Origin: an uncultured Porphyromonadaceae bacterium
Lineage (GTDB): Bacteria; Bacteroidota; Bacteroidia; Bacteroidales; Muribaculaceae
Assembly (NCBI GenBank): GCA_947176915.1
Contig: CAMWSM010000005.1
Location: forward strand, 1-64,000
Length of the DNA: 64,000 bases
Reading direction: 5' to 3'
Of the stretch, positions 39,127 through 42,805 are shown one piece after another; position 1 is the first letter of the stretch, and every line of letters starts with the position of its first letter. Below the pieces are notes generated by a model. That model saw only the letters and a program-made list of their open reading frames with translations. It made no database searches and had not been told where the DNA came from. Made by a program: the position numbers and the translations under genes.

Positions 39127-40155
39127 TCAGTCTGCGCTACGTTCCCTTCTCCAGCGTTGCATAATTTCATTCAGTTTCTCATGTTCGATAAGGAAACCAT
39201 CGTGAGCAAACTTAGAATCCATCAGTTCGAGGCGCGATCCGGGGATAAAATCAGCAAGTTCTTCCAGACAAGCCGGAGGGAAAAGGATGTCGGAGTTAAT
39301 TCCTATCACGAGAGTAGGTGCGGTTATTCTGGCGAGGGCTTTTTTCAATCCCCCTCTTCCGCGCCCTACGTCATGAGAGTCTCCGCTCTCACAAATCCTT
39401 ACGTATGAATAGACATCGAATCGGCGGCAAAGTTTAGTGCCCTGATATTCCTGATATGTCTGGACACGATGGAAAAACGGATCTTCCTTATCTTCTGAAT
39501 CACGTTGGCTCATGTTGTAAGCGAAAGGACCCCGATAGCTGATCAGGGCAATGGAACGGGCGGTGGAAAGTCCTTGTTGGGCAGCGTCCAGTCTCGGCTC
39601 TCCCCAGGTGGGGTCAGTTTGAATCGCCATATACATTGATTTGTTGAAAGCCGCGAGCCAGGGACTGCAGGAGGAGTCAGTGGCGCAGAACATGGTGTAT
39701 TCTGCGAAATCAGGCTGCTCCACCATCCATTCTATGGCTTGGAATCCCCCTAAGGAGACACCTATCATTTCATGAATCCTCTTTATCCCGAGATGTTGGG
39801 CAAGCATCCTGTGAGCTTTGACCATATCACGGATAGTAACCCGAGGGAAGTCGCCACACCAAGGTTTTCCTGTTGAGGGATTGATTGAAGAGGGTCCCGT
39901 TGTGCCGTAGCATGAGCCGAGGACATTTGCACAGACAATGAAATATTTCTCCGGATCAAGGAATTTCCCTTTTTCCACGGTGTGAGGCCACCAGTCGGCG
40001 ACATCGGAGTTGGCAGTAAGCCCGTGCATTACCCAAATCACATTTGATTTATCCTCATTCAGGGTGCCAAATGTGTGGTATGCCACTGTCAGCTCGGGGA
40101 GAGTTTCGCCTGATTCAAGAATGAATGGCTCGTTGAAATGAAAAGAATGTCTCAT
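39127..40155 (-). CDS. metX: Homoserine O-acetyltransferase
   Basis: 342 aa alpha/beta hydrolase; GVSLGGFQAIEWMVEQPDF nucleophile elbow; NVIWVMHGLTANSD. Confidence 0.92.
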   Translation of the reverse strand: MRHSFHFNEPFILESGETLPELTVAYHTFGTLNEDKSNVIWVMHGLTANSDVADWWPHTVEKGKFLDPEKYFIVCANVLGSCYGTTGPSSINPSTGKPWCGDFPRVTIRDMVKAHRMLAQHLGIKRIHEMIGVSLGGFQAIEWMVEQPDFAEYTMFCATDSSCSPWLAAFNKSMYMAIQTDPTWGEPRLDAAQQGLSTARSIALISYRGPFAYNMSQRDSEDKEDPFFHRVQTYQEYQGTKLCRRFDVYSYVRICESGDSHDVGRGRGGLKKALARITAPTLVIGINSDILFPPACLEELADFIPGSRLELMDSKFAHDGFLIEHEKLNEIMQRWRRERSAD

Positions 40156-40228: not shown

Positions 40229-40236
40229 CAAAGTTA
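40229..40236 (-). promoter_or_regulatory. Putative -7 element for metX
   Basis: TAACTTTG on - strand between the ncRNA terminator and metX; no clear -33. Confidence 0.4.
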
Positions 40237-40238
40237 AT

Positions 40239-40278
40239 AAAAAAAGGTGTTATTCCTCACGGAGTCACACCTTTTTTT
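40239..40278. terminator. Strong bidirectional terminator hairpin
   Basis: AAAAAAAGGTGT...ACACCTTTTTTT, 12-bp perfect stem plus inner 5-bp stem. Confidence 0.88.
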
Positions 40279-40410
40279 AAATTCCAATGTACCATTATTC
40301 AACCAAACGAACATCGGTCATAATAAATGACAAAACCCTTATCCGTATGAAGATGACCGATGGTGCATCTCAGGTCATCTCGACCGTGGACACACTGATT
40401 ATTTGATTAC
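40239..40410 (-). ncRNA. Candidate structured small RNA upstream of metX, 6S-RNA-like architecture
   Basis: Closing stem 40389-40397/40285-40293 with G:U pairs, bubble with small hairpin 40373-40385, apical 10-bp stem 40353-40362/40312-40321, own promoter and terminator. Confidence 0.6.
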
Positions 40411-40415
40411 GGTGG

Positions 40416-40446
40416 CAAAATTAACATAATATTATTAAAAATGCAA
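40416..40446 (-). promoter_or_regulatory. Predicted promoter of the candidate ncRNA
   Basis: - strand TTG-N20-TAATTTTG. Confidence 0.6.
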
Positions 40447-40663: not shown

Positions 40664-42805
40664 ATGGAAACAATAGCACAGGCTGTGAGCCGCCGACTCA
40701 ATATATCTATACGCCAGGTAGAGGCAACTTTGGAACTCCTCGAGGGGGGAGCGACTGTCCCGTTTATCAGCCGTTACCGCAAGGAGCGTACGGGTTCGCT
40801 TGACGAAGTGGCTATACGCAGCATAGAGACCGCCGCCAGAAGCGAACGTGAATTGCAGGCGAGAAAGGAATATGTGAAAAATGCCATAGAGAGCAGCGGA
40901 CTTCTGACTTCTGACTTGCAGAGAAAAATTTATGCGGCTGAGACCATGACGGAGGTAGAGGATATTTATGCCCCCTACAAGCCTAAGAAAAGGACTCGGG
41001 CTACCATTGCACGAGAGAAGGGTCTGGAGCCATTAGCAAAGATTCTTATGGCAGGCAATGTCCGGCGTTGTGATGAGGCTGCCCGACGCTTTGCGGGGAA
41101 GAATGGTGTGGAGAATGCGGAAGAGGCATTGGCAGGCGCATCCGACATTATTGCCGAATGGGCATCCGAATCATCAAGATTAAGGGGGATTACACGTAAT
41201 GCTTATCAACGAAGGGGTGAATTGAGTTCTACTCCGGTGAAAGGGAAGGAGGCTGAACTTGCCGCTTCCCCCTATGCCATCTATGCTGATTTCACAAGAG
41301 GGGTGAGCAGGATGCAGTCTCATCAGTATCTCGCCCTGAAGCGAGCAGAGAGGGAGGGATTGCTGAAGGTCAGAATGGGAGTTGATGATTTAGAGGCATT
41401 GGATGGTGCACTGTGTCGGGCATTTGTGCCGCGCGGTGGTAGCCGGGAATGTCAGGAAATTGTAGGCAAGGCTGTAGAGGATGCTTCCAAGCGTCTGCTT
41501 CGTCCCTCTGTGGAGAATGAGATATCCACTTCCCTTAAGGAGGCGGCAGACAAGATTGCAATAGGAATATTCTCAGAGAATTTGCGTCAGCTTCTCCTTG
41601 CCTCACCCTTGAAAGGAAGGAGAGTGCTTGCCATGGATCCGGGTTACCGCACAGGGTGTAAAGTGGTTGCTCTTGACAGCCAGGGAAACCTTCTTGAGGA
41701 CACAGTGGTTTATCCCGTTCCTCCCAAAGAGGATTTGAAGGGGGCTCGTGAAATACTCGAGCGTCTGATACGCCGCCATAAGCTTGATGCGATAGCTCTC
41801 GGAAACGGCACTGCCTCAAGGGAGACTGAAAAATTCTTGAAAGGGAGCGGATTAATGGATGCCTCAAAGATATATATCGTGAATGAGAACGGAGCTTCAG
41901 TCTATTCCGCCTCTGATCTTGCCAGAAAAGAGTTTCCGGATAAGGATGTTACTGTAAGGGGTGCGGTGTCAATCGGGCGGCGTCTGATTGATCCGCTTGC
42001 CGAATTGGTTAAAATAGATCCTAAGTCGATAGGAGTTGGACAATATCAGCATGACGTGGATCAAGGGGATTTAAAAGATGCGCTTGATTTCACGGTTATG
42101 AGTTGCGTCAATGCGGTTGGAGTGGATGTGAACACGGCTTCGGAACGACTCTTATCGTATGTCTCAGGCATTGGACCGGCGCTGGCTGCCAATATCGTTG
42201 CCTATCGTGCGGAGAACGGTGATTTCCGCACACGTCAGGAATTGAAGAAAGTGGCACGCTTGGGAAATAAGGCATTTGAGCAGGCAGCCGGTTTCCTCAG
42301 AGTGCCGGGAGGTAAAGAACCGCTTGACAACACAGGCATCCATCCGGAGAGCTACAAAGTGGTGGAGGCTATGGCAAGGGAACTTAAAGTGGATGTATCG
42401 GCTCTTCCCGGTAATAACGATTTACTTGATAGAATAAATGTCAAGCAGATTGCCGCTTTGGGCATATCAGGCGAGGAGACCGTGAAGGATATAATCCTTG
42501 AACTGCGAAAGCCGGGACGCGATCCTCGGCTTGATGATGACAATGATGCATTTGTCGCGGGCATAGGAAGTTTTGAGGAACTTCGGGAGGGTATGGTTCT
42601 CCCCGGCATTGTCAATAATATAACCGCTTTCGGAGCCTTCGTAAACCTTGGAATAAAGGAGAATGGACTGATTCATATTTCCCAGATGTCTCGACGCAGG
42701 ATTCAGTCGGTAGGAGAGGTTTTGAAATTAGGACAGAGGGTAGAGGTAAGGGTTGTGGACATTGACCCTCACCGTCATCGCATAGGGCTGTCGCTTTTGA
42801 TTTAG
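40664..42805 (+). CDS. tex: Tex-family RNA-binding transcription accessory protein
   Basis: 713 aa; PFISRYRKERTGSLDEV, YqgF-like AMDPGYRTGCKVVALD, HhH and S1 domains. Confidence 0.96.
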   Translation: METIAQAVSRRLNISIRQVEATLELLEGGATVPFISRYRKERTGSLDEVAIRSIETAARSERELQARKEYVKNAIESSGLLTSDLQRKIYAAETMTEVEDIYAPYKPKKRTRATIAREKGLEPLAKILMAGNVRRCDEAARRFAGKNGVENAEEALAGASDIIAEWASESSRLRGITRNAYQRRGELSSTPVKGKEAELAASPYAIYADFTRGVSRMQSHQYLALKRAEREGLLKVRMGVDDLEALDGALCRAFVPRGGSRECQEIVGKAVEDASKRLLRPSVENEISTSLKEAADKIAIGIFSENLRQLLLASPLKGRRVLAMDPGYRTGCKVVALDSQGNLLEDTVVYPVPPKEDLKGAREILERLIRRHKLDAIALGNGTASRETEKFLKGSGLMDASKIYIVNENGASVYSASDLARKEFPDKDVTVRGAVSIGRRLIDPLAELVKIDPKSIGVGQYQHDVDQGDLKDALDFTVMSCVNAVGVDVNTASERLLSYVSGIGPALAANIVAYRAENGDFRTRQELKKVARLGNKAFEQAAGFLRVPGGKEPLDNTGIHPESYKVVEAMARELKVDVSALPGNNDLLDRINVKQIAALGISGEETVKDIILELRKPGRDPRLDDDNDAFVAGIGSFEELREGMVLPGIVNNITAFGAFVNLGIKENGLIHISQMSRRRIQSVGEVLKLGQRVEVRVVDIDPHRHRIGLSLLI

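What the first reader, a model, noticed from the sequence alone, without database searches (positions are those of the whole stretch)
40239..40446. Unannotated ~165-nt structured RNA with its own promoter upstream of metX; 6S-like architecture
Seen on the - strand: TTG-N20-TAATTTTG promoter, then an RNA whose ends pair (CAGUGUGUC with GGUACAUUG, 9 bp including G:U pairs, extended by AAAU/AUUU), an asymmetric central bubble containing GGUC-GAGAU-GACC, and an apical perfect 10-bp stem CAUCGGUCAU/AUGACCGAUG, followed by a 12-bp terminator AAAAAAAGGTGT/ACACCTTTTTTT. G:U pairs in the closing stem would be A:C mismatches on the other strand, supporting the orientation. A competing pairing GATGACC/GGTCATC overlaps the apical stem. 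A separate -7 box (TAACTTTG) lies between the terminator and metX, so it looks like an independent sRNA rather than a metX leader. Inference: closed stem, central bubble and apical stem resemble 6S RNA; an attenuator or new riboswitch is the alternative.
Basis: partly seen in the sequence, partly recalled or inferred. Interest (0 to 1): 0.78.

Follow-up and report, generated by a model that had tools for sequence, protein, structure and literature searches.

The report
Unannotated gut-bacterial small RNA family
The stretch next to metX encodes a separately transcribed small RNA, found in about 40 related gut bacteria, whose 21-letter core hardly changes and looks like an antisense sequence that binds other messages just before their start codons; it is not a 6S RNA.

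Summary
On the minus strand (about 40410 to 40239) there is an independent sRNA gene: Bacteroidota promoter (TTG-N20-TAATTTTG), about 170 nt, intrinsic terminator, then a separate -7 box for metX. Homologues with the same layout occur in about 40 of 111 genomes of the genus (Muribaculaceae), next to metX, GAPDH, asmA-like and other genes, so it is not a metX leader. The "6S-like" closing stem is not conserved, and no Rfam 6S, FopS, GibS or SAM model matches. Its exact complement (13 nt or more) occurs 9-39 nt before start codons (DUF4465 protein in two species, SusC-like, M13 and M18 peptidases), more often than composition predicts (4 of 16 independent non-sRNA sites versus 3-5% expected). 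One pair of related phages carries a perfect 20-nt complement 10 nt before an ATG. Best explanation: a trans-acting antisense sRNA that blocks translation initiation, working like Bacteroides GibS/FopS but in a new family. Expression, the targets and the direction of regulation are not shown.

The parts
40416..40446 (-). sRNA promoter: TTG (40446-40444), 20-nt spacer, -7 box TAATTTTG (40423-40416)
   Evidence: sequence; box present in 28 of 38 homologues versus 2.4 in shuffles, mostly with TTG/TTTG at the -33 position
40239..40410 (-). sRNA transcript, about 170 nt (5' end inferred near 40410, 3' end at the U-tract)
   Evidence: promoter and terminator bounds; homologues of 170-470 nt with the same layout
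40312..40362 (-). apical hairpin (P2) immediately 5' of the core, CAUCGGUCAU/AUGACCGAUG
   Evidence: compensatory changes in relatives
40288..40308 (-). near-invariant 21-nt core GUUUGGUUGAAUAAUGGUACA between two helices; proposed antisense (seed) region
   Evidence: exact 20-mer in 20 genome contigs records; core with up to 3 mismatches in 42 of 111 genomes of the genus; complements before start codons
40239..40278 (-). intrinsic terminator, 12-bp stem with CCGUGAGG (GUGA) loop
   Evidence: sequence, fold; terminators in homologues
40229..40236 (-). separate -7 box TAACTTTG of metX
   Evidence: sequence; the same ATTAACTTTGCA follows the terminator in the nearest relatives
39127..40155 (-). 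metX-like homoserine O-acyltransferase (neighbour, not part of the RNA)
   Evidence: NCBIfam TIGR01392 E 2e-99, below its curated cut-off
40664..42805 (+). tex (divergent neighbour)
   Evidence: Pfam Tex domains

Best explanation
It is a trans-encoded antisense sRNA. SHOWN by sequence: a promoter-to-terminator unit, a near-invariant 21-nt core held between a covarying 5' hairpin and a 3' helix, and homologues in about 40 species with changing gene neighbours. SHOWN statistically but on small numbers: exact complements of the core's 5' half lie just upstream of start codons more often than expected. INFERRED: the exposed core pairs with translation initiation regions of a few mRNAs (surface and secreted proteins, SusC-like transporter, peptidases, possibly a phage gene), covers the ribosome-entry stretch and represses translation, as GibS and FopS do in Bacteroides. 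The variable 5' part and terminator act as stabilisers.
For: Independent gene: contexts differ, promoter, terminator. Selection on the core: exact in many species while flanks are unalignable. The core is not consistently paired inside the RNA. Targets: the 13-mer TATTCAACCAAAC in 111 genomes gave, besides sRNA loci, about 16 independent sites. Four are in leaders, 9-39 nt before ATG (DUF4465 in two species, SusC-like, M13, M18), all in genomes that have the sRNA; composition-weighted expectation is 3.4-4.8%, with P 0.001-0.004 for 4 of 14. Duplexes with the species' own sRNA are -23 to -28 kcal/mol, reached by 0-5 of 1000 shuffled leaders; in DUF4465 the leader also matches the 3' half of the core, and the SusC-like leader has an 18-nt contiguous match. 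Perfect 20-nt complement 10 nt before an ATG in two related phage contigs. GibS and FopS precedent for start-codon targeting without a Shine-Dalgarno sequence (PMC7366714, PMC11697453).
Against: No transcript or target data. Target numbers are small, and I chose the leader criterion after seeing the phage case. The counts with one mismatch show no excess over the reversed pattern (19 non-self versus 21), and a local scan with two mismatches shows none, so no broad regulon is demonstrated. In the window's own genome only an imperfect leader match was found (L301, 15 of 1000 shuffles). Non-cognate sRNAs of the family pair equally well with the targets, so there is no sRNA-target covariation.
Confidence: 0.66

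Rival explanations
1. Protein-binding sRNA: the invariant core is the recognition site of an RNA-binding protein (for example an RRM protein such as RbpB), and the RNA acts as a sponge or scaffold rather than by antisense pairing.
For: 21 nt is long for a bacterial seed; the core is constant although few perfect targets exist per genome. RbpB binds a 41-nt motif in single-stranded regions of FopS sRNAs (PMC11697453).
Against: Does not explain why complements cluster before start codons. The two ideas are compatible.
Confidence: 0.2
2. 6S RNA of Muribaculaceae that mimics an open promoter and binds RNA polymerase.
For: Size and single-copy status fit; the window RNA alone can be drawn with a closing stem, bubble and apical stem. 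A validated Bacteroides 6S RNA with pRNAs exists (PMC7366714), so one is expected in this family.
Against: Closing stem not conserved; length varies from 170 to 470 nt; conserved element lies near the 3' end between two hairpins; no Rfam 6S match, although that model found only 5 of 14 control genomes.
Confidence: 0.04
3. Cis-acting leader, attenuator or riboswitch of metX.
For: In at least ten homologues metX is the next gene downstream.
Against: Own terminator followed by a separate metX promoter; same RNA beside GAPDH, asmA-like and other genes; metX relatives in other genera lack it; no SAM or other riboswitch model matches.
Confidence: 0.05
4. The complements before start codons are chance in AT-rich leaders and the real function of the core is unknown.
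For: Small numbers, criterion set after the first example, no excess with mismatches.
Against: Exact matches exceed a composition-weighted expectation, the DUF4465 site is kept in two species, and all four independent leader sites are in sRNA-positive genomes.
Confidence: 0.2

Closest known systems
FopS family of Bacteroides (Rfam RF04319, PMC11697453)
   Same: sigma-ABfr-type promoter, conserved single-stranded stretch of about 20 nt proposed or shown to pair with translation initiation regions, SusC-type and outer-membrane mRNAs among targets, sequence also seen in a phage
   Different: FopS: 12-15 copies per genome, about 65-70 nt, seed at the 5' end. Here: usually one copy, 170-470 nt, core internal, towards the 3' end. 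The FopS model does not match the window RNA; its hits on one relative are at chance level and lie over the terminator region
GibS of Bacteroides (Rfam RF04182, PMC7366714)
   Same: single intergenic trans-encoded sRNA with a conserved unpaired seed, about 145 nt
   Different: seed at the 5' end, different promoter type (PM2); model does not match the window RNA at E 10 and matches one relative only on the opposite strand
BTnc231, Bacteroides sRNA (Rfam RF04180)
   Same: weak full-length match in one homologue (L087, 25.5 bits against a cut-off of 80.4) through the two 3' hairpins, including a CGUGAG-capped terminator
   Different: consensus has no counterpart of the core; 1 of 20 homologues only; same-type terminators occur elsewhere
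6S RNA (Rfam RF00013)
   Same: size range, stable long hairpins
   Different: no conserved end-closing stem or central bubble, no model match

Membership tests
6S RNA | match to the Rfam 6S covariance model | tested here: not met
   no match in window or genome; caveat: the model rang in only 5 of 14 control genomes
6S RNA | 5' and 3' ends pair to close the molecule, conserved in homologues | tested here: not met
   no consistent pairing of 5' end and core region in 23 homologues
6S RNA | binds RNA polymerase and templates pRNAs | not testable with these tools
   needs RNA data
FopS / GibS | sequence and structure model match (RF04319, RF04182) | tested here: not met
   nothing in the window at gathering or E 10; only chance-level hits in one relative, none at E 5 in 20 homologues
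FopS / GibS | multicopy (FopS), seed at the 5' end | tested here: not met
   usually one copy per genome, core 100-280 nt from the 5' end
trans-encoded base-pairing sRNA (mechanistic class) | independent transcription unit not tied to one neighbour | tested here: met
   promoter, terminator, changing neighbours
trans-encoded base-pairing sRNA (mechanistic class) | conserved unpaired stretch complementary to translation initiation regions | tested here: inconclusive
   conserved stretch met; exact complements enriched before ATG but on small numbers, no excess with mismatches
trans-encoded base-pairing sRNA (mechanistic class) | regulates those mRNAs | not testable with these tools
   needs deletion and reporter experiments
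metX leader / SAM riboswitch | always upstream of and co-transcribed with methionine genes; model match | tested here: not met

The most novel reading that the evidence does not exclude
A host-encoded antisense sRNA whose core recognises a phage mRNA: the perfect 20-nt complement lying 10 nt before the start codon of a phage gene is a genuine target (or a phage-made decoy), so the RNA serves phage-host control as well as surface-protein regulation.
Probability: 0.15. Interest if true: 0.8.

Novelty: new member of a known kind. Interest (0 to 1): 0.57.

Why it matters
Almost nothing is known about regulatory RNAs of Muribaculaceae, a family common in the mouse gut (own knowledge); three literature searches held no sRNA study of it. 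A family with a near-invariant core, a clear promoter and named candidate targets is directly testable. It would extend start-codon-targeting antisense control, so far described in detail for GibS and FopS of Bacteroides, to another family, in bacteria that lack homologues of classical RNA chaperones.

Tried and rejected
6S: no model match and no conserved closing stem. Riboswitch or attenuator of metX: other contexts. Short ORF starting at the ATGGTACA in the core: reading frames differ between homologues (seen in the sequences). Weak Rfam hits (sraA, cyano_het_sRNA, BTnc231, snoRNAs) are chance or terminator-driven. GUGA-capped hairpins as a family signature: other terminators in the window have them too. 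Family- and order-wide pattern hits with 2-3 mismatches: those inspected lack the sRNA layout, and counts are close to those of the reversed pattern. Weak hits of model R1 (G182, G360, G069, G327 and two more) lack the layout. Downstream of GAPDH in 30 genomes taken mainly without a core match: one further diverged copy, in G290. The phage contigs have no relative in the phage collection.

Full report
WHAT IS THERE. On the minus strand between tex and metX the window holds a complete small-RNA transcription unit: TTG-N20-TAATTTTG (40446-40416), about 170 nt, and a 12-bp terminator ending at 40239, followed at once by a second -7 box for metX. The fold of the whole region is better than shuffles (z -3.7), but mainly because of the terminator (z -1.9 without it); the fold alone would not prove an RNA.

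CONSERVATION. A DNA search of 297 family genomes found ten matches, all in the window's genus; some covered only about 21 nt. That stretch, GUUUGGUUGAAUAAUGGUACA (window 40308-40288), is the heart of the family. Its 20-mer occurs in 20 genome records, Muribaculaceae or uncultured Bacteroidales by their titles, and with up to 3 mismatches in 42 of 111 genomes of the genus, almost always once per genome (a few of these 2-3 mismatch hits are chance). A covariance model gives a similar count (39 of 111, the weakest being chance). A further diverged copy that keeps only GUUUGGUUGAAUA, with its own -7 box and terminator, lies near GAPDH in G290. Outside the genus the hits look like background.

INDEPENDENT GENE. 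The RNA lies before metX in one group of species, beside GAPDH in another, and beside asmA-like, DegT, sdhB, miaB and other genes elsewhere (several of these neighbour names are by eye). A TAnnTTTG[CT] box lies 95-300 nt upstream of the core in 28 of 38 homologues versus 2.4 in shuffles, usually with TTG/TTTG at the right distance. Terminators, most capped by a GNRA-type loop, end the RNAs; such loops are also found on other terminators of the window and are not a family mark.

STRUCTURE. In nearly all homologues a hairpin ends shortly 5' of the core, and in most another helix begins shortly 3' of it, while the stem letters change freely. For 14 sequences with the CAUCGG-type hairpin, 6 of 10 pairs show double changes, 88% of cells pair, and sliding the arms destroys the signal (arms read without alignment). 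The closing stem (5' end with GGUACAUUG) exists only in the window and its closest relatives; across 23 homologues the 5' end pairs with the core no better than shuffles in most. Length varies from 170 to 470 nt. This is not a 6S architecture.

MECHANISM. A constant unpaired 20-mer between changing stems is what an antisense seed or a protein site looks like. The complement was looked for. (1) In IMG/VR the 20-mer occurs in two related phage contigs, in both as the antisense strand 10 nt before the ATG of a small gene. One such exact match is about what chance could give once in ten searches, judged from 16-mer counts; the position is the suggestive part. (2) In 111 genomes the 13-mer complement of the conserved half occurs 55 times. 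After removing sRNA loci about 16 independent sites remain (merging three related 3'-region sites); four (five sites) are in leaders 9-39 nt before an ATG: a secreted DUF4465 protein in two species, a SusC-like receptor, an M13 and an M18 peptidase. Composition-weighted expectation is 3.4-4.8%, giving P of about 0.001-0.004 for 4 of 14, the count used when the test was run; with 16 the value rises slightly. All four are in sRNA-positive genomes. Duplex energies with the own sRNA are -23 to -28 kcal/mol. The SusC-like gene has a promoter 158 nt upstream of the site; the M13 and M18 sites are intercistronic; the DUF4465 site lies just after a terminator-like hairpin and no -7 box was seen there, a weakness. 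(3) With one mismatch there is no excess over the reversed pattern, and a two-mismatch scan of 348 kb shows none. So a small set of strong targets is suggested and a broad regulon is not.

I therefore commit to a trans-acting antisense sRNA that blocks translation initiation (0.66), with a protein-binding role of the core as main alternative. GibS and FopS in Bacteroides are experimentally shown to act this way (PMC7366714, PMC11697453), but their Rfam models do not match the window RNA, hit one relative only at chance level and do not hit 20 homologues at E 5. Copy number, length and seed position differ as well. It works like them; it is not shown to be one of them.

LIMITS. No transcript data, few targets, post-hoc criterion, and the window's own genome has only an imperfect candidate (L301, a probable secreted protein without a Pfam match). 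Distribution is probably underestimated because the 3' half of the core drifts.

Noticed in passing
L094 and L095 (IMG/VR phage contigs), about 1600 and 1500 bases from one end: Small divergent gene (89 aa, no Pfam match) between terminase and portal genes; its leader is a perfect 20-nt complement of the sRNA core, 10 nt before the ATG.
   Followed up: partly
L447 and L462, upstream of the DUF4465 gene: Conserved region with repeated hairpins and a terminator-like hairpin ending about 6 nt before the complementary site; could be another RNA gene or an attenuator.
   Followed up: no
L453, L455, L456: Related 3' regions in three species where the core was not found or only poorly matched, behind genes that seem to end in a type IX secretion-like tail; each carries TATTCAACCAAACATTT next to a conserved AGATTTCTCATAAAAT-like stretch. 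Unexplained.
   Followed up: partly
window 40353-40321 minus strand; L006, L007, L078, L079, L087, L088, L090: The loop of the apical hairpin holds a conserved AGGGUUUUGUC in the metX-linked group; it is unpaired in the consensus and unexplained.
   Followed up: no
window 40406-40397 minus strand, also L079 and L084: The first nucleotides (UCAAAUAAUC) can pair with the 5' half of the core, which could hide the seed in this subgroup only.
   Followed up: partly
L085, L089, L091: A terminase-like protein gene (by eye, not searched) follows the sRNA downstream of GAPDH in three species; in L085 the next gene looks like a homocysteine methyltransferase, so it may not be a prophage.
   Followed up: no
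window 62487 and 18249, minus strand: Other strong terminators with the same GUGA loop, suggesting GNRA-capped terminators are common in these bacteria.
   Followed up: partly
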